Source: Euzebya tangerina (GTDB lineage Bacteria; Actinomycetota; Nitriliruptoria; Euzebyales; Euzebyaceae). Taken from it: a DNA stretch of 64,000 bases. The stretch's first letter is position 1, and every line of letters begins with the position of its first letter. Positions 25,623 through 64,000 of this stretch are shown one piece after another. The notes under the pieces were generated by a model. That model was not told where the DNA came from, ran no database searches, and saw nothing but the letters and a program-made list of their open reading frames with translations. Both the position numbers and the translations under genes were made by a program. The stretch spans positions 930,001 to 994,000 of the forward strand of contig NZ_PPDK01000001.1 in assembly GCF_003074135.1 (NCBI RefSeq), read 5' to 3'.

Positions 25623-26558
25623 ATGGCTGAGATGACGTGGACGCTTGCCGACATCCCGGACCAGACGGGACGGGTGGCCGTGGTCACCGGGGCCAACAGC
25701 GGGATCGGCCTGATCACAGCCCGAGAGCTGGCCATCAAGGGGGCCCATGTGGTGATGGGCTGTCGGAATCTGACCAAGGGCGAGTCGGCCGTAGCGGACA
25801 TTCGGGCGGAGGCGCCCTCAGCGGCCCTGGAGTTGGTGCAGCTCGATCTGGCGAGCCTGGACTCGGTCCGCGCATTCGCCGCAGAGGTCAAGGGGCGTCA
25901 CAACCGGCTGGACGTCCTGGTGAACAACGCCGGGATCATGATGGTGCCGGAGGGGACGACGCAGGACGGGTTCGAGCTGCAGTTCGGCGTGAATCACCTG
26001 GGTCACTTCGCGTTGACCGGTCTGCTGTTCGATCTCCTCGCCGAGACCGATGGGAGTCGCGTGGTCACCGTGTCCAGCAGCGCCCATGCCTGGGGGACGT
26101 TCGACGCCGAGGACCCCATGTTCCAGACGTCCCCGTACGACAAGCGGGAGGCGTACGGCCGGTCGAAGCTCGCCAACCTGCTGTTCACCTACGAGTTGCA
26201 GCGTCGGGTCGAGCAGGCGGGGCTCGACGGACCGGCCGCGCTGGCCGCCCACCCCGGTGTGGCAGCCACCAACCTGGGTGACCACATGCTTCGGGGGTGG
26301 TACGCCAAGCCGGTGAAGCTCCTCATGAACGTGGTCTTCCCGTCCGCAGTGCAGGGTGCGTTGCCTACGCTGCGGGCAGCGGTCGATCCCGATGCCGAGG
26401 CCGGGGAGTACTACGGCCCTGATGGGTTCCAGGAGGCCCGGGGCAAACCCGTGGTGGTCCGCTCGAACCGGGCCTCGCGCGATGAGACGGATGCCCGGAA
26501 GCTCTGGGAGATCTCGGAGGAGTTGACCGGGGTGCGTTTCCGCGGCCTGGAGGGCTGA
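25623..26558 (+). CDS. Short-chain dehydrogenase/reductase (retinol-dehydrogenase-like SDR)
   Basis: A 311-residue classical SDR: cofactor motif VVTGANSGIGL, structural NNAG (VLVNNAGIMM), active-site serine in VTVSSSAH, and YGRSK as the YxxxK catalytic pair. The long C-terminal part and the sequence style match the RDH/WWOX-like bacterial SDRs that are often annotated as retinol dehydrogenase-like. The true substrate is unknown. It lies 264 bp upstream of the heliorhodopsin gene on the same strand, possibly linked through the small ORF at 26566. Confidence 0.88.
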   Translation: MAEMTWTLADIPDQTGRVAVVTGANSGIGLITARELAIKGAHVVMGCRNLTKGESAVADIRAEAPSAALELVQLDLASLDSVRAFAAEVKGRHNRLDVLVNNAGIMMVPEGTTQDGFELQFGVNHLGHFALTGLLFDLLAETDGSRVVTVSSSAHAWGTFDAEDPMFQTSPYDKREAYGRSKLANLLFTYELQRRVEQAGLDGPAALAAHPGVAATNLGDHMLRGWYAKPVKLLMNVVFPSAVQGALPTLRAAVDPDAEAGEYYGPDGFQEARGKPVVVRSNRASRDETDARKLWEISEELTGVRFRGLEG

Positions 26559-26565
26559 GTCGCCG

Positions 26566-26826
26566 ATGGCACGGCGCGCTCGGCAGCTGGGACCGCGGTG
26601 GTGGCGGCGGTGGCGCCAACGGCGGCGGCGGATGACCGAGGTGCGTGACGGCGGACCTCCCCGCCAGGCACACCAGAAGCACGCACACCCCGGAGACTTC
26701 CTCGAAGGCTCCTTCAACCAACCGGGCTCACACCAGCCGCCGAGCTCGGGCCCGACGAGCCGACGTTTGGCGGGGCCGGGAGCGGTCAACGGTGAGCAGA
26801 CCACCGTCGACCGGAGCGCCTCATGA
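26566..26826 (+). CDS. Possible small basic protein coupled to the heliorhodopsin gene
   Basis: An 86-residue frame begins 7 bp after the SDR stop and ends with a TGA that overlaps the heliorhodopsin ATG (ATGA). Its N-terminus is extremely basic and Trp-rich (PRWWRRWRQRRRR) and the rest is polar. No family is recognised and codon third positions are less G/C-biased than in neighbours, so it may be chance. Its only support is the tight spacing on both sides. Confidence 0.3.
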   Translation: MARRARQLGPRWWRRWRQRRRRMTEVRDGGPPRQAHQKHAHPGDFLEGSFNQPGSHQPPSSGPTSRRLAGPGAVNGEQTTVDRSAS

Positions 26827-27650
26827 CCTCCATCAACAATCCCGCCGTCCACGCCTCCTCCGACAGCGCAGCCCAGATCGAGGTGAGTTCGGAGCGGGCC
26901 ACCAATCTGCGGCGGTGGAACATCGCCATGGGCACGCTGCACGGCATCTCCGGCGTGGTCATGTTGATCCTCGCCAACGACTTCACCCTGCCAGTGGGCG
27001 CCCGGTACCTGCTCGGCCCCCCGGGCACCGGCTTCGAGGACGCCACGACGACCGAGCTGTTCGCCTTCCCGCTGGCCATCGGCACTGCGGGCTTCCTGCT
27101 GCTCTCGGCCCTCTTCCACGGGATCATCGCCACGGTCGGGTTCTCGCGGTACCTCGACGAGTTGCGGCACGGGCGGAACCGCTTCCGCTGGGTGGAGTAC
27201 TCCGCCTCCTCCACGTTGATGATCGTGCTGATCGCGATGCTCAACATCACCGAGTTCGCGGCCTTGATCGCCATCGCCGGAGCCAACATCGCCATGATCC
27301 TGTTCGGCTGGATCATGGAGATGGTCAACCGCCCCGGGGAGCCGGTCTGGTGGACCCCTTTCGCCTTCGGCTCCGTGATCGGCTTGGTGCCCTGGCTGGT
27401 GCTCGCGTTCTACCTGGTCCAGCCCGGCACACCAGAGGGGTCGCCGTCGGCGCCCGGCTTCGTGTACGGCATCGTCTTCACGATCTTCGTCTTCTTCAAC
27501 ACCTTCGCGGTGAACCAGTGGGCGCAGTACGCCCAGAAGGGCCGCTGGAAGGACTACCTGGTGGGTGAGAAGACCTATCAGGTGCTCTCGTTGGTGGCGA
27601 AGAGCGCGCTGGCCTGGCAGATCTTCGCCAACACGCTCATACCGGCGTAG
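26823..27650 (+). CDS. Heliorhodopsin
   Basis: A 275-residue seven-helix protein with clear heliorhodopsin hallmarks: FRWVEYSASSTLMI with the counterion glutamate at E125, and the last helix LSLVAKSALAWQIFANTL with the retinal Schiff-base lysine K260 and the serine four residues before it (S256). His40 and His99 may correspond to the two conserved internal histidines of helices A and B. Heliorhodopsins bind retinal but have inverted topology and no general pump activity; they are thought to be sensory or enzyme-regulating. A retinal-forming Blh gene is in this window at 62869-63852. tRNA-Leu follows. Confidence 0.95.
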   Translation: MTSINNPAVHASSDSAAQIEVSSERATNLRRWNIAMGTLHGISGVVMLILANDFTLPVGARYLLGPPGTGFEDATTTELFAFPLAIGTAGFLLLSALFHGIIATVGFSRYLDELRHGRNRFRWVEYSASSTLMIVLIAMLNITEFAALIAIAGANIAMILFGWIMEMVNRPGEPVWWTPFAFGSVIGLVPWLVLAFYLVQPGTPEGSPSAPGFVYGIVFTIFVFFNTFAVNQWAQYAQKGRWKDYLVGEKTYQVLSLVAKSALAWQIFANTLIPA

Positions 27651-27686
27651 CAAAGGCGCGGGCTGGCTGGCCGGGCTGGCCCTCGC

Positions 27687-27692
27687 TACACT
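27687..27692 (+). promoter_or_regulatory. Probable -10 element TACACT for tRNA-Leu
   Basis: TACACT is 27 bp before the tRNA and identical to the hexamer before tRNA-Ile (9092-9097). No good -35 is seen. Confidence 0.35.
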
Positions 27693-27719
27693 CAGCGACT
27701 CCTCAATCCATTGAGCCAC

Positions 27720-27804
27720 GGGCGAGTGGCGGAATTGGTAGACGCGCACGGTTCAGGTCCGTGTGTCTTCGGACATGGGGGTTCAAGTCCCCCCTCGCCC
27801 ACCA
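27720..27804 (+). tRNA. leuT: tRNA-Leu (CAG), CCA encoded
   Basis: Acceptor GGGCGAG pairs with CTCGCCC, the anticodon CAG is at 27754-27756 between CACGG/CCGTG, a long variable arm (TGTCTTCGGACA) marks a class II tRNA, and the T-arm is GGGGGTTCAAGTCCCCC. Unlike the other two tRNAs in the window, the terminal CCA (27802-27804) is encoded. Confidence 0.97.
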
Positions 27805-28184
27805 GCCGGTCGAAACGCAGTCTGACCTGGAGTTTCTCCGATGTCGTGCACTTCGGTCGCGTGTGTCGGTTCAGCGCTGTTGTAGGCGCGATGACCCAGC
27901 GATGACCAAACAGCAGCGGTTCGGCGCGAGACGGGGCGCCTTGGGGTGGGACGATTTGGGACTCGGAGGAGTGGTTCCAGGTGACATGGGGACGGCCTCC
28001 TGGCTGAGGTGCCGTGGTGGCTAGGTGCGGTCTGTGGCGAGTCGTTCGGGCCAAGTTGAGCCGTTCAGCGGCCTGCGATCAGAGGGTCCAGCCTCACTCG
28101 AGGACCCGGACGCGTCGTCTTCGCAACGTTCGTTGAGGCCGATAGGCTTCTCTAAAGGGAAAGGCCCATCTCGTTTGGAAGAAC
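27805..28184. other. 380-bp gap between tRNA-Leu and the Fic gene
   Basis: No credible gene, integrase remnant or repeat of the tRNA 3' end is seen. Base composition looks somewhat less GC-rich than the surroundings. The Fic gene promoter probably lies near 28140-28160 (GATAGGCT) but is not clear. Confidence 0.5.
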
Positions 28185-29348
28185 TTGGACGCGCACAGGT
28201 ACGTTGACAAGACGTTCGGGGCGGTCCGCACGCTCCCCGGTCCGCATGGGTACGACCACTACGTGCCAGCACCTGTGCCGCGCGGCTTGGATCTGGACCA
28301 AGACACGGTTCGCAGTCTCTCCGACGCCGACCGTGCGCTCGGGCGCTTGGCCGGCGCCGGGCGACTCCTTCCCAACCCGCACCTGCTCGTCCAGCCATAC
28401 CTGACGGCGGAGGCGCTGGCCAGTTCGCAGATCGAAGGCACACAAGCGTCCTTGAGCGAGGTGCTGGAGGCTGCCGCCGACGACGGGGACTCCGACAGCG
28501 TCGATGTCCGTGAGGTCCAGAACTACATCGCAGCCTTCGAGCTCGGCCGTCGGCTGCTCCAAGACCTGCCGCTCTCACTCCGGCTGATCCGGGCCGTCCA
28601 CGAACGTCTGTTGACCGGCGTCCGAGGCGAGGAGAAGAACCCGGGTGAGTTCCGGACGAGCCAGAACTGGATCGGGCCACCCGGCATGGGCTTGGCGGAC
28701 GCCAGCTTCGTCCCCCCCAGACACGACCCGGAGATGACCGGAGCGCTTGCGGACTGGGAGCGGTTCCTCCACGAGCGCGAGGGCGGTCTTCCGGTCCTGG
28801 TCGCCTGCGCGTTGATCCACTATCAGTTCGAGACCATCCACCCGTTCTTGGACGGCAACGGCCGGATGGGGCGTCTGATCATCTTCTTGTACCTCCTCGA
28901 TGTGTGCGAGTTGTCTGAGCCGCTCCTCTACCTCAGCCCGTGGTTCGAGCGCAGCCGGCAGACCTACTACGACCGCCTTCAGGGAGTGCGGGAACGCGGG
29001 GAGATGCAGGCGTATCTCCAGTACTTCCTCGACGGCGTCGCGGTCCAGGCCCACGACGCGGTAGCTCGTGCTGAGCGGCTCACGGACCTCCAGCAGCAGT
29101 ACCGCAGCGATCTGACCGGCGACCGGAGCAACGCCGTCCACCTTGTGGACCTCATCTTCGCGAACCCGTTCGTGACGACAGCGAGGGTGGTGAGGGAGCT
29201 CGACATCAGCAGCCCGGGCGCGCTCAACCTGATCCGCAAGCTCGAGGGGCTGGGCTGGCTGCAGGAAGCACGCGTGTCCGGCCGTGGGGGGCGTATCACA
29301 TGGGTCGCGGGGGAGATCATGCGGTTGCTGACCGCGCCGTCGGGATAG
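28185..29348 (+). CDS. Fic-family AMPylase-type protein with winged-helix C-terminus
   Basis: A 387-residue Fic protein. The core motif HPFLDGNGRMGR is at about 219-230, intact for transfer of AMP from ATP to hydroxyl groups of target proteins. The inhibitory helix SSQIEG (about 80-85) is on the N-terminal side, so this is a class II, self-inhibited enzyme. The last 70 residues (VTTARVVRELDISSPGALNLIRKLEGLGWL) look like a winged helix for DNA binding. TTG 28185 has GGAAG just upstream. It is the first gene after tRNA-Leu and sits 11 bp before the potassium channel gene. Fic proteins of this form are often horizontally spread. Confidence 0.9.
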   Translation: MDAHRYVDKTFGAVRTLPGPHGYDHYVPAPVPRGLDLDQDTVRSLSDADRALGRLAGAGRLLPNPHLLVQPYLTAEALASSQIEGTQASLSEVLEAAADDGDSDSVDVREVQNYIAAFELGRRLLQDLPLSLRLIRAVHERLLTGVRGEEKNPGEFRTSQNWIGPPGMGLADASFVPPRHDPEMTGALADWERFLHEREGGLPVLVACALIHYQFETIHPFLDGNGRMGRLIIFLYLLDVCELSEPLLYLSPWFERSRQTYYDRLQGVRERGEMQAYLQYFLDGVAVQAHDAVARAERLTDLQQQYRSDLTGDRSNAVHLVDLIFANPFVTTARVVRELDISSPGALNLIRKLEGLGWLQEARVSGRGGRITWVAGEIMRLLTAPSG

Positions 29349-31141: not shown

Positions 31142-31291
31142 GTGCCGTGGCCACCCAGGCCGTTCCGGAGTCGGCTCTCCGCACGTCGTCATCAGGCAGA
31201 CGCGCGGCTACATCGCCAGCTGATGCTGGACGAGCTCTCAAGACCGGGCAGACTGCCCCCCAGTTCGTGTCGTGAGTCGGAGGAGGTTGAC

Positions 31292-33202
31292 GTGGACAGG
31301 CTCGGCTGGTTGAGGCGGCAGGCAGGGCGCGGTGCGCTCGCCGCAACGCGACGGAGCCTGTGGGTCGCCACGCAGGGGGTCCGGGTGGCAGAGACGTTGG
31401 CCAGCTCGCTGGACACCGACGCGCGTCACGCCCTGCGGAACCGGCCGCAGGGTGAGGAGCTGGACCTGACGCGGGATGACGGCGCCCGTGTGCGCGTCCA
31501 CCTCGCGGGTGACTCGGACGGTGACGTCGTGGTCCTGACCCACGGGTACGGATTGACTGCAGCGTCGTGGAACCTGGTCGCAACGCCGCTGGTCGAGCAG
31601 GGGTTTCGCGTCGTGACGTTCGACTGGCGCGGACACGGCGACTCGATCAACGACGACCGGCACGTCACACCGGATGAGCTCGTCAGCGACCTGCGAACCG
31701 TCTTCGAGCGCCTCGACCTCGACGACGTGTTGCTCGTCGCACACTCGACCGGCGGATTCATCACGCTCGCGACGCTGGTGGAGCACCCAGACTTCGCTGA
31801 CCGGCTGCGCGGGATCATCCTCGTCGCAGCCCTGGCAGGTGACCTGCTCGACGGGGCGCCCGCAGGCGACACCGACTGGCAGGCCTCCCGCACGAGCGTC
31901 CCTGCACGGCTGCTGCGCAACACGACCCTCGGCCTGCTGCTCGGCGGCTTCGCGCAGGGCGCCGGCGTGTCCTCGGCAGTGTCGGAGGAGCTTCTCGACC
32001 AGTTCGCCCACACTGACCACGATGCACTCGCGACCCTGATCGCAGCGCTGTCCAGCCGCAGCTACTACGGTCGGCTGCACCGCATCGACGTACCGGCCAT
32101 CGTCGTGGTCGGCGGAAGCGACAGCACCATCCCCGAGGGCCACGGCCGGTCCATCGCCAACGAGATGCCCAACGCTCGCCTGATCACCGTGGACGGCGCC
32201 AGCCACCTCCTCAACTGGCACCGGCCCCAGCGCATCGTCGACCTCGTGGTCGACTTCGACGCCGCTGCCGGCCCGCCCGAGGAGGCTCCCGACTGCCGCA
32301 CCGCCTTGGTCGTGCTGAACCCGGCATCCGGAGACCACGACGCCGACGAGACCCAGCACGCCATCACCGAGGCGTTGGGCGCCGCCAATCTCGACGTCGA
32401 GGTGCGACGTACCCAGGGCGAGGGTGACGCGCGGCGGTGGGCCGCTGAGGCCGCGCGGGAGCGCAGCCACGATGTGGTGGTCGCCGTGGGCGGCGATGGC
32501 ACGGTGCGCGAGGTCATCTCGGGTGTGACGTCGGCCGAGGGTGGCGTGACGGTGGGGATCGTGCCGACAGGGACCGCCAACCTCCTCGCACGTGCCCTTC
32601 GCATACCGATCGACGACCGCAGAGCTGCGGCGGATGTGATCGCTGGAGGTGGCGCGCGTCATCTGGACGTGCTGCACCTCGTGGAACGCGACGAGCACGC
32701 GGTGCTCATGGTCGACGCGGGCTTCGATGCCAAGTTGGTGCGCGACGCGTCCCGAGGTGTCAAGGACGTGCTCGGCTCGCTGACCTACATCCTGGCTGGG
32801 CTGCGCAACACCGTCGGGCTCGAGGAGCGGGATCTCGAGCTCGAGGTCGACGGCGAGCGTCGCACGATACGGGGCCACTCCGTGCTGTGCCTGAACGTCG
32901 GACGCATCGGGCAGAGCGTGATCGTGGATGCCGACATTCGACCGGACGACGGCCGTCTGCACATCGGGGTCGTGCGCCGACCCACGCCATGGCACGTGCT
33001 CACGACCGCTGCTGGCATGGCAGTACTGGGTCAGGATGCCCATCCCAACACGGAGTGGTTCTCTGGCCGGAGGGTACGGCTGTCGGCCGAGCCCGCGATG
33101 GCGCTGCAGGTCGACGGCGATCCTGCCGGCCAGACCCCCGTCGCGGTTGAGGTGCTGCCCTCGGCCGTCCAGGTTGCGGTGCCCGAAGAATCGGGCCACT
33201 GA
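31292..33202 (+). CDS. Alpha/beta-hydrolase fused to a diacylglycerol-kinase-type lipid kinase
   Basis: A 636-residue two-domain enzyme. The N-terminal half is an alpha/beta hydrolase with THGYGLTAASW (oxyanion region), nucleophile S152 in VAHSTGGF, an acid in GGSDSTIP and His in GASHLLNWH. The C-terminal half is a DAGK/sphingosine-kinase-type domain with GGDGT at 400-404, VPTGTANLLAR and AGFDAKLVRDAS. It could couple a lipase or esterase step to phosphorylation of the released lipid. GTG 31292 is chosen for GGAGGAGG at 31279-31286, five bases away, and because residues before it look non-coding. Confidence 0.85.
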   Translation: MDRLGWLRRQAGRGALAATRRSLWVATQGVRVAETLASSLDTDARHALRNRPQGEELDLTRDDGARVRVHLAGDSDGDVVVLTHGYGLTAASWNLVATPLVEQGFRVVTFDWRGHGDSINDDRHVTPDELVSDLRTVFERLDLDDVLLVAHSTGGFITLATLVEHPDFADRLRGIILVAALAGDLLDGAPAGDTDWQASRTSVPARLLRNTTLGLLLGGFAQGAGVSSAVSEELLDQFAHTDHDALATLIAALSSRSYYGRLHRIDVPAIVVVGGSDSTIPEGHGRSIANEMPNARLITVDGASHLLNWHRPQRIVDLVVDFDAAAGPPEEAPDCRTALVVLNPASGDHDADETQHAITEALGAANLDVEVRRTQGEGDARRWAAEAARERSHDVVVAVGGDGTVREVISGVTSAEGGVTVGIVPTGTANLLARALRIPIDDRRAAADVIAGGGARHLDVLHLVERDEHAVLMVDAGFDAKLVRDASRGVKDVLGSLTYILAGLRNTVGLEERDLELEVDGERRTIRGHSVLCLNVGRIGQSVIVDADIRPDDGRLHIGVVRRPTPWHVLTTAAGMAVLGQDAHPNTEWFSGRRVRLSAEPAMALQVDGDPAGQTPVAVEVLPSAVQVAVPEESGH

Positions 33203-62868: not shown

Positions 62869-63852
62869 TCAGCGGCCCCCCGCCTGACGGTGATCGAGGT
62901 AGGACACGGCGAGGACGTGTGGGAACGTGACGGCTGCCGTGACCTGGAGCGCCAGCGCCGCGAGGTCGACCGGTGACCAGGATGGGGCAACACGTAGCGC
63001 CAATCCGAGCGCCCCGACTGCGATCAGCGTCGGAGGGATGGCATCCCGGACGAATCGCCGGAACGAGGCCGCGGCTCCGTGTTCCAGCCACACAATCCGG
63101 TACGGGGGCTCCTCGGTCAGCATGCGTGCGATGTGACGGGGCGCGTGCCACAGACCGAAGTAGACGGCGAAGGCCCAGACCGGCGGAGCCACGACGAAGA
63201 GTGCGCCGACCAGCAGCAGGTCCACGACGGCGTGGTAGCGCCGCGCCATCGACTCGACGACCACTGCCGCCGCCAGAACGACTGTCGTGCTCCAACCGAC
63301 CGTCGCCACGACCGGTGGTTGCAGCAGGAAGACTAAATCCGGACTGAGTTCCGCAGCCAGCGGTCGCAGTTCGGAGGCCCCGAAGACCATGAGGCCAGCA
63401 ATGGGGATCAGACCCGCCGCGGCGCCATGCAGCCGGGACGGGCGTCGTCGGCCCGCAGAGAGAGAGACCCTGTCAGCAGTCCCGAAGTGCCAAGCCGAGA
63501 TGAGCAGGAAGGCGGGCCAGACGATGCCGGGGAAGAGGCCCGCGGCGACAAAGACCCCGATGGCCAGGAGGGCGTAGCAGAGCGTGCCGACGCCGATGCC
63601 CAGCCACCCGCCAATTCTGCGGGCTAGCAGGACGTGGTCGACGGCCCCGTGCGGGAGCCCCGCGATGAGCGCGACTGAGAGAGGTAGGAGGGACATGCCA
63701 CCAAGCCAGCCAGCAGCGGCAAACACAATGGCAGCGGCCAGGAGCAGCCGGGTCCAGCGCTGCGTCACTGATTCGCCGGTCCAAGGCAAAGCCGGACCTC
63801 CCCCTGCCACAGTGGGCTGCAGGGGGGAGGTGGTTTGGGAGCTCGTCCGCAC
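62869..63852 (-). CDS. blh: Brp/Blh-family beta-carotene 15,15'-dioxygenase
   Basis: A 327-residue membrane protein with about seven helices and the histidine-rich Blh motifs: GLPHGAVDH, SAWHFGTADR, VYFGLWHAPRHI and TFPHVLAVSYLDHRQ. The histidines hold the iron that cleaves beta-carotene into two retinal molecules. It starts at GTG 63852, 16 bp after the stop of the partial rhodopsin gene, so they form an operon. It also supplies retinal for the heliorhodopsin at 26823-27650. Confidence 0.95.
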   Translation of the reverse strand: MRTSSQTTSPLQPTVAGGGPALPWTGESVTQRWTRLLLAAAIVFAAAGWLGGMSLLPLSVALIAGLPHGAVDHVLLARRIGGWLGIGVGTLCYALLAIGVFVAAGLFPGIVWPAFLLISAWHFGTADRVSLSAGRRRPSRLHGAAAGLIPIAGLMVFGASELRPLAAELSPDLVFLLQPPVVATVGWSTTVVLAAAVVVESMARRYHAVVDLLLVGALFVVAPPVWAFAVYFGLWHAPRHIARMLTEEPPYRIVWLEHGAAASFRRFVRDAIPPTLIAVGALGLALRVAPSWSPVDLAALALQVTAAVTFPHVLAVSYLDHRQAGGR

Positions 63853-63868
63853 GAGGACCGTGGTGCGC

Positions 63869-64000
63869 CTAGGGAGCCGTCACACGGACAGACTCTCCGT
63901 CGGTCAAGTCGACCTCGCCCGCTTCGATCAACTCGGCGGTCTTGACCAACGCGATCTGCGCGATGAGCACACCGAACAGCGCCTTGGCGAGTATGTCGGC
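63869..64000 (-). CDS. Type-1 microbial rhodopsin, C-terminal end (cut by window edge)
   Basis: Reading inward from base 64000 on the minus strand, 43 codons end at TAG (63869-63871). The peptide begins ADILAKALFGVLIAQIALV, the pattern of the seventh helix of xanthorhodopsin/actinorhodopsin-type proton pumps, with the Schiff-base lysine at codon 6 (63983-63985). The tail is acidic. The 16-bp gap to blh is typical of rhodopsin-blh operons. The rest of the gene lies outside the window, so pump type cannot be read. Confidence 0.75.
   Translation of the reverse strand, partial: ADILAKALFGVLIAQIALVKTAELIEAGEVDLTDGESVRVTAP

What the first reader, a model, noticed from the sequence alone, without database searches (positions are those of the whole stretch)
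26823..27650. Heliorhodopsin gene in an actinobacterial origin neighbourhood
Seen: VEYSASSTLMI with E125, and LSLVAKSALAWQ with K260 and S256. Known: heliorhodopsins bind retinal with inverted topology and have unclear function, thought to be sensory or enzyme-regulating. Its flanks (SDR and tRNA-Leu) could help define the role.
Basis: partly seen in the sequence, partly recalled or inferred. Interest (0 to 1): 0.75.

Follow-up and report, generated by a model that had tools for sequence, protein, structure and literature searches.

The report
Ordinary actinobacterial heliorhodopsin gene
This is an intact gene for a heliorhodopsin, a known kind of upside-down, retinal-binding light receptor in the cell membrane; it is a fairly divergent but ordinary member, its genome also carries genes to make retinal and two other rhodopsins, and its neighbours do not reveal what it signals to.

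Summary
Confirmed. Window 26823-27650 (+) encodes a 275-aa heliorhodopsin (HeR): Pfam PF18761 303.9 bits (cut-off 26.7), NCBIfam equivalog NF038020 292.2 bits (cut-off 100), 46% identical to crystallised 48C12. The model has seven helices plus the HeR-typical A-B loop strands (TM 0.84-0.90, rmsd 2.4 A to 6su3), and the charge pattern fits N-inside topology. E125, S256 and K260 equal 48C12 E107, S237 and K241. The neighbourhood is origin-proximal, with SDR and tRNA-Leu flanking as said. But the flanks do not define the role: the SDR is one of about 30 SDR hits in the genome, lies 264 bp away, and is not beside HeR in congeners, whose HeR sits next to tmRNA; no adjacent gene recurs among 42 near relatives. 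Retinal can be home-made: Blh lies 35 kb away in the window (62869-63852), 16 bp from a xanthorhodopsin-type DTE rhodopsin. The Glu and Trp linked to proton transport in viral HeRs are absent (I221/F225), so a non-pumping light sensor acting on an unidentified partner is most likely. New member of a known kind.

The parts
26823..27650 (+). heliorhodopsin gene, 275 aa
26813..26816 (+). GGAG, likely ribosome-binding site, 6 nt before the ATG
   Evidence: sequence; inference
27195..27197 (+). codon of E125, Schiff-base counterion (48C12 E107)
   Evidence: alignment: invariant in 111 sequences
27588..27590 (+). codon of S256 (48C12 S237)
27600..27602 (+). codon of K260, retinal-binding lysine (48C12 K241)
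27720..27804 (+). tRNA-Leu (CAG), 69 bp downstream; neighbour, no shown functional link
25623..26558 (+). short-chain dehydrogenase/reductase (NF004846-type oxidoreductase), 264 bp upstream; neighbour, not conserved beside HeR
62869..63852 (-). Brp/Blh beta-carotene 15,15'-dioxygenase: makes retinal from beta-carotene; likely chromophore source
   Evidence: PF15461 121.9 bits; TIGR03753 145.1 bits, cut-off 95.25
63869..64000 (-). C-terminal end of a xanthorhodopsin-type rhodopsin (D-T-E motif); the gene runs on outside the window to genome C1:994687

Best explanation
A heliorhodopsin that works as a light sensor or switch. Retinal, made by the Blh enzyme encoded 35 kb away, binds K260 as a protonated Schiff base with E125 as single counterion. 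Green-yellow light (expected maximum about 545-556 nm) isomerises retinal; the proton moves inside the cytoplasmic half without crossing the membrane; the slow photocycle changes the shape of the cytoplasmic loops, which alter the activity of a partner protein. Shown here: family membership, key residues, predicted fold, charge pattern, presence of a retinal-forming enzyme gene in the genome, absence of the proton-transport residues. Inferred: retinal binding, colour, no transport, partner regulation. The partner is unknown and is probably not encoded next door.
For: Profiles. Residues H40, S95, H99, Y110, R122, W123, E125, S129, N155, E166, S256, K260 match 48C12 H23, S76, H80, Y92, R104, W105, E107, S111, N138, E149, S237, K241; all but S95 are invariant in 111 sequences. 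Motifs ESL (E125/S129/L136) and SxxxK (S256-K260) are the ones named for HeRs in PMC9601134. Fold: 7 helices 23-50, 84-103, 120-139, 145-168, 178-199, 212-236, 245-272 and A-B loop strands 55-62, 75-83; Foldseek to 6su3 TM 0.84/0.90; VIA Z 27-29 to HeRs against 21.6 for the best type-1 rhodopsin. K+R sit in the N-terminus and loops 98-132 and 231-254, almost none on the other face. Proton-transport hallmarks E191 and W195 of V2HeR3 (PMC9448325) fall on I221 and F225. Blh in the window, phytoene synthase on C4. Among 61 related genomes HeR co-occurs with Blh or RPE65 (12 of 31 with HeR, 1 of 30 without; Fisher p 0.001, not corrected for kinship). Colour: Q232, A259 and the GPPG stretch agree with the HeRs above 550 nm of PMC7807009; M165 does not.
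Against: No experiment. Nothing in the sequence names a partner. Most HeR-bearing relatives lack both Blh and RPE65 (19 of 31), so the link to retinal synthesis is statistical. Cytoplasmic loop 3 differs from relatives: A234 where 107 of 111 have L, A237 where nearly all have R/K, K239 where most have V/I, which could mean a changed or lost partner surface. The model was made from 26 sequences with mean pLDDT 79.8.
Confidence: 0.8

Rival explanations
1. The HeR binds and regulates the neighbouring SDR (for example a retinal or other carbonyl reductase), as other HeRs regulate glutamine synthetase, photolyase or an ABC transporter.
For: SDR is one of ten frequent operon neighbours of HeR in the survey of PMC11109279. 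Same strand, next gene upstream.
Against: 264-bp gap; about 30 SDR hits in this genome alone; HeRs of two congeners sit beside tmRNA in a different locus; within 4 kb of HeR in about 100 loci SDR-like genes turn up on either side and strand. NF004846 is a broad oxidoreductase subfamily.
Confidence: 0.05
2. The HeR is a light-driven proton transporter like viral V2HeR3.
For: Same family; E249 (V2HeR3 E215) is kept.
Against: E191 and W195 positions are I221 and F225; E205 position is Q235, as in 48C12. The genome already has a DTE rhodopsin next to Blh.
Confidence: 0.04
3. The gene is a laterally gained passenger beside a tRNA with little present function, or it acts without a protein partner (for example retinal storage or quenching).
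For: Long end branch (0.56) and a place in the tree apart from the congeners' HeRs; different location within the genus; several HeRs lie within 300 bp of a tRNA or tmRNA gene.
Against: The frame is intact and the functional residues are kept; holding the congeners' HeRs and this one together is not rejected (AU p 0.128); the tRNA excess is small and partly shared descent.
Confidence: 0.08

Closest known systems
48C12 heliorhodopsin (PDB 6su3, 6su4, 6uh3, 9ljj)
   Same: whole length, 46-47% identity, key residues, fold, A-B loop strands
   Different: S43 in place of Q26 (S is common among relatives), M165 in place of Q148, A237/K239 in cytoplasmic loop 3, longer N-terminus
TaHeR, Thermoplasmatales archaeon (PDB 6is6, 7clj, 7u55)
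   Same: fold (Z 29.1) and family
   Different: 39-40% identity
HeRs of uncultured Acidimicrobiales, Ilumatobacter and related Actinomycetota (L031, L032, L067, L055)
   Same: nearest sequences, 57-63% identity
   Different: gene neighbourhoods differ; eight of nine such genomes tested lack Blh
V2HeR3, proton-transporting viral HeR (PMC9448325)
   Same: family, counterion
   Different: lacks the E191/W195 transport residues

Membership tests
Heliorhodopsin (type-3 rhodopsin; PF18761 / NF038020) | scores over curated family cut-offs over the full length | tested here: met
   303.9 vs 26.7 bits, profile 1-242/242; 292.2 vs 100 bits, equivalog
Heliorhodopsin (type-3 rhodopsin; PF18761 / NF038020) | retinal lysine in TM7 within SxxxK, counterion Glu in TM3 within ESL | tested here: met
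   K260, S256; E125, S129, L136
Heliorhodopsin (type-3 rhodopsin; PF18761 / NF038020) | seven helices with a fold nearer to solved HeRs than to type-1 rhodopsins | tested here: met
   (predicted model)
Heliorhodopsin (type-3 rhodopsin; PF18761 / NF038020) | inverted topology: N-terminus in, C-terminus out | tested here: met
   by charge pattern only; not by experiment
Heliorhodopsin (type-3 rhodopsin; PF18761 / NF038020) | binds all-trans retinal, absorbs 530-556 nm, slow photocycle | not testable with these tools
   range from PMC7807009
Proton-transporting HeR (V2HeR3 type) | Glu at V2HeR3 E191 and Trp at W195 in TM6 | tested here: not met
   I221 and F225, placed by spacing from conserved Q235 and E249
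Type-1 microbial rhodopsin (PF01036) | match to PF01036 | tested here: not met
   only PF18761 matches; the genome-wide PF01036 hits are two other genes

The most novel reading that the evidence does not exclude
The HeR was gained independently of its congeners' HeRs, in a genome with a home-made retinal supply and a three-rhodopsin kit (HeR, DTE rhodopsin, S-T-Q rhodopsin), and its altered cytoplasmic loop 3 addresses a partner not yet known for any HeR.
Probability: 0.12. Interest if true: 0.45.

Novelty: new member of a known kind. Interest (0 to 1): 0.2.

Why it matters
HeRs are common in Actinomycetota and have been tied to different partners in different species. This case adds a genome that can make its own retinal and holds three rhodopsins, and it shows that gene neighbourhood alone will not reveal the partner here. 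It is useful as a further test case, not as a discovery.

Tried and rejected
SDR as conserved partner: tblastn of the SDR and other neighbours against about 110 HeR loci found no consistent placement, and a genus search found 30 or more SDR hits in each genome. Conserved neighbours: all-against-all of ORFs within 4 kb of HeR gave mostly families limited to near-identical clades; no adjacent gene family occurs in more than three of the 42 nearest HeR loci. My own composition-based gene caller picked antisense frames in this window and was dropped. Promoter and terminator consensus scan of 26400-27900: nothing found, uninformative for this group. tRNA association: six of 109 loci (five after merging a near-identical pair) have a tRNA/tmRNA within 300 bp, where the loci's own tRNA density predicts about 1.4; suggestive only. 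Independent gain of HeR in this genome: the tree separates it from congeners' HeRs, but the AU test does not reject one clade (p 0.128). Kinship through named loci is not told by the tool.

Full report
Observation. The ORF at 26823-27650 (+) is real and intact, 275 aa, ATG to TAG. The flanks are an SDR gene (25623-26558, +) and tRNA-Leu CAG (27720-27804, +). The region is origin-proximal: RecF-like ATPase, gyrB, gyrA, tRNA-Ile, tRNA-Ala, then PASTA kinase, PBP-like and RodA-like proteins, PP2C and FHA proteins. The window is C1:930001-994000 of a 4.78-Mb genome.

Identity. PF18761 is the only Pfam family hit, 303.9 bits against a cut-off of 26.7, full length; NCBIfam's equivalog model NF038020 gives 292.2 bits against 100. 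The only solved proteins matched by sequence are heliorhodopsins, 48C12 first (E 3e-68). In an alignment of 111 sequences the residues known to matter in 48C12 are present, most of them invariant. The AlphaFold2 model (26 sequences, mean pLDDT 79.8, pTM 0.76) has seven helices and two strands in the A-B loop; it matches 48C12 with TM 0.84/0.90 and solved HeRs with Z 27-29 against at most 21.6 for type-1 rhodopsins. Positive charges lie in the N-terminus and the loops that would be cytoplasmic if the N-terminus is inside, which is the inverted HeR topology.

What is special and what is not. Nearest known sequences are 57-63% identical, from Acidimicrobiales and related Actinomycetota. The protein has a long end branch (0.56) as sister to a 57-row clade (98/86), apart from HeRs of two congeners, G002 and G003, which are 49-50% identical to it. 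A single clade of the three is not rejected (AU p 0.128), so independent gain is possible but not shown. Unusual residues cluster in cytoplasmic loop 3: A234, A237, K239. PMC11109279 reports highly conserved charged residues there and suggests that they serve partner binding; the mapping of its R229, R233, R235, D236 to A237, R241, K243, D244 is my inference from spacing.

Neighbourhood. In G002 and G003 the HeR lies 677 and 161 bp downstream of tmRNA, in another locus. The fourth congener, G001, has no HeR. The SDR next to the window's HeR has about 30 homologous hits in the same genome, and its closest matches in congeners (52%) are not beside HeR. In the 42 nearest HeR loci no adjacent gene family occurs in more than three. 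So the flanks do not identify the partner. This fits the published picture of HeRs with many different neighbours (PMC8612252; PMC11109279).

Chromophore supply. A Brp/Blh beta-carotene dioxygenase gene lies at window 62869-63852 (-), 16 bp downstream of a type-1 rhodopsin gene that starts beyond the window's end; that protein is closest to xanthorhodopsin-type proteins (psXR, Gloeobacter rhodopsin) with D-T-E in helix C. Phytoene synthase is on C4, with ORFs beside it that look like a phytoene desaturase and a GGPP synthase (read by eye, not profiled). Congeners with HeR (G002, G003) lack Blh and type-1 rhodopsins but have an RPE65-type oxygenase; G001 lacks all. Over 61 genomes, HeR goes with Blh or RPE65 (12/31 against 1/30, p 0.001) and with type-1 rhodopsins (18/31 against 2/30, p 2e-5); kinship was not corrected for. 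Many HeR genomes still lack both retinal enzymes, as reported for Actinomarinales (PMC7771536).

Mechanism. Best reading: a sensory/regulatory HeR. Transport is unlikely because the E191 and W195 positions of V2HeR3 are I221 and F225, and Q235 stands where V2HeR3 has E205. Expected absorption about 545-556 nm, from Q232, A259 and GPPG as in the red-most natural HeRs, with M165 the exception. The partner remains unknown.

Verdict. New member of a known kind.

Noticed in passing
L137:7614-8516 (-), genome G000:C1:165617-166516, outside the window: A second type-1 rhodopsin with S-T-Q in helix C (FRYISWLITIPLLLVQ) and DxxxK in helix G, where the ten relatives whose motif was read have N-D-Q (as in sodium pumps) and chloride pumps have N-T-Q; closest relatives are 38-43% identical. 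No closer relative among 396 genomes of the phylum, and no paper held names the motif. Ion specificity open.
   Followed up: partly
window 62869-64000 (-) and L136:8869-10687: Blh and a xanthorhodopsin-type DTE rhodopsin form a likely two-gene operon at the window's end, absent from the three congeners searched.
   Followed up: partly
L111:8706-10512, L112:9201-10491; also L066, L097, L101, L105, L110: Heliorhodopsin genes lie close to a tRNA or tmRNA gene somewhat more often than the loci's tRNA density predicts (6 of 109 within 300 bp, about 1.4 expected); may mark integration sites.
   Followed up: partly
G039:C1:1725526-1725901 (-): Remains of a heliorhodopsin gene: only the second half matches, in two pieces with a stop inside, in a one-contig relative genome.
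   Followed up: no
window 28185-29348 (+): Fic/DOC-family protein (Fic_N and Fic domains) downstream of tRNA-Leu; no relative near HeR elsewhere.
   Followed up: no
window 31142-33202 (+): A 686-aa ORF joins an alpha/beta hydrolase domain to a diacylglycerol-kinase/YegS-type lipid kinase domain.
   Followed up: no
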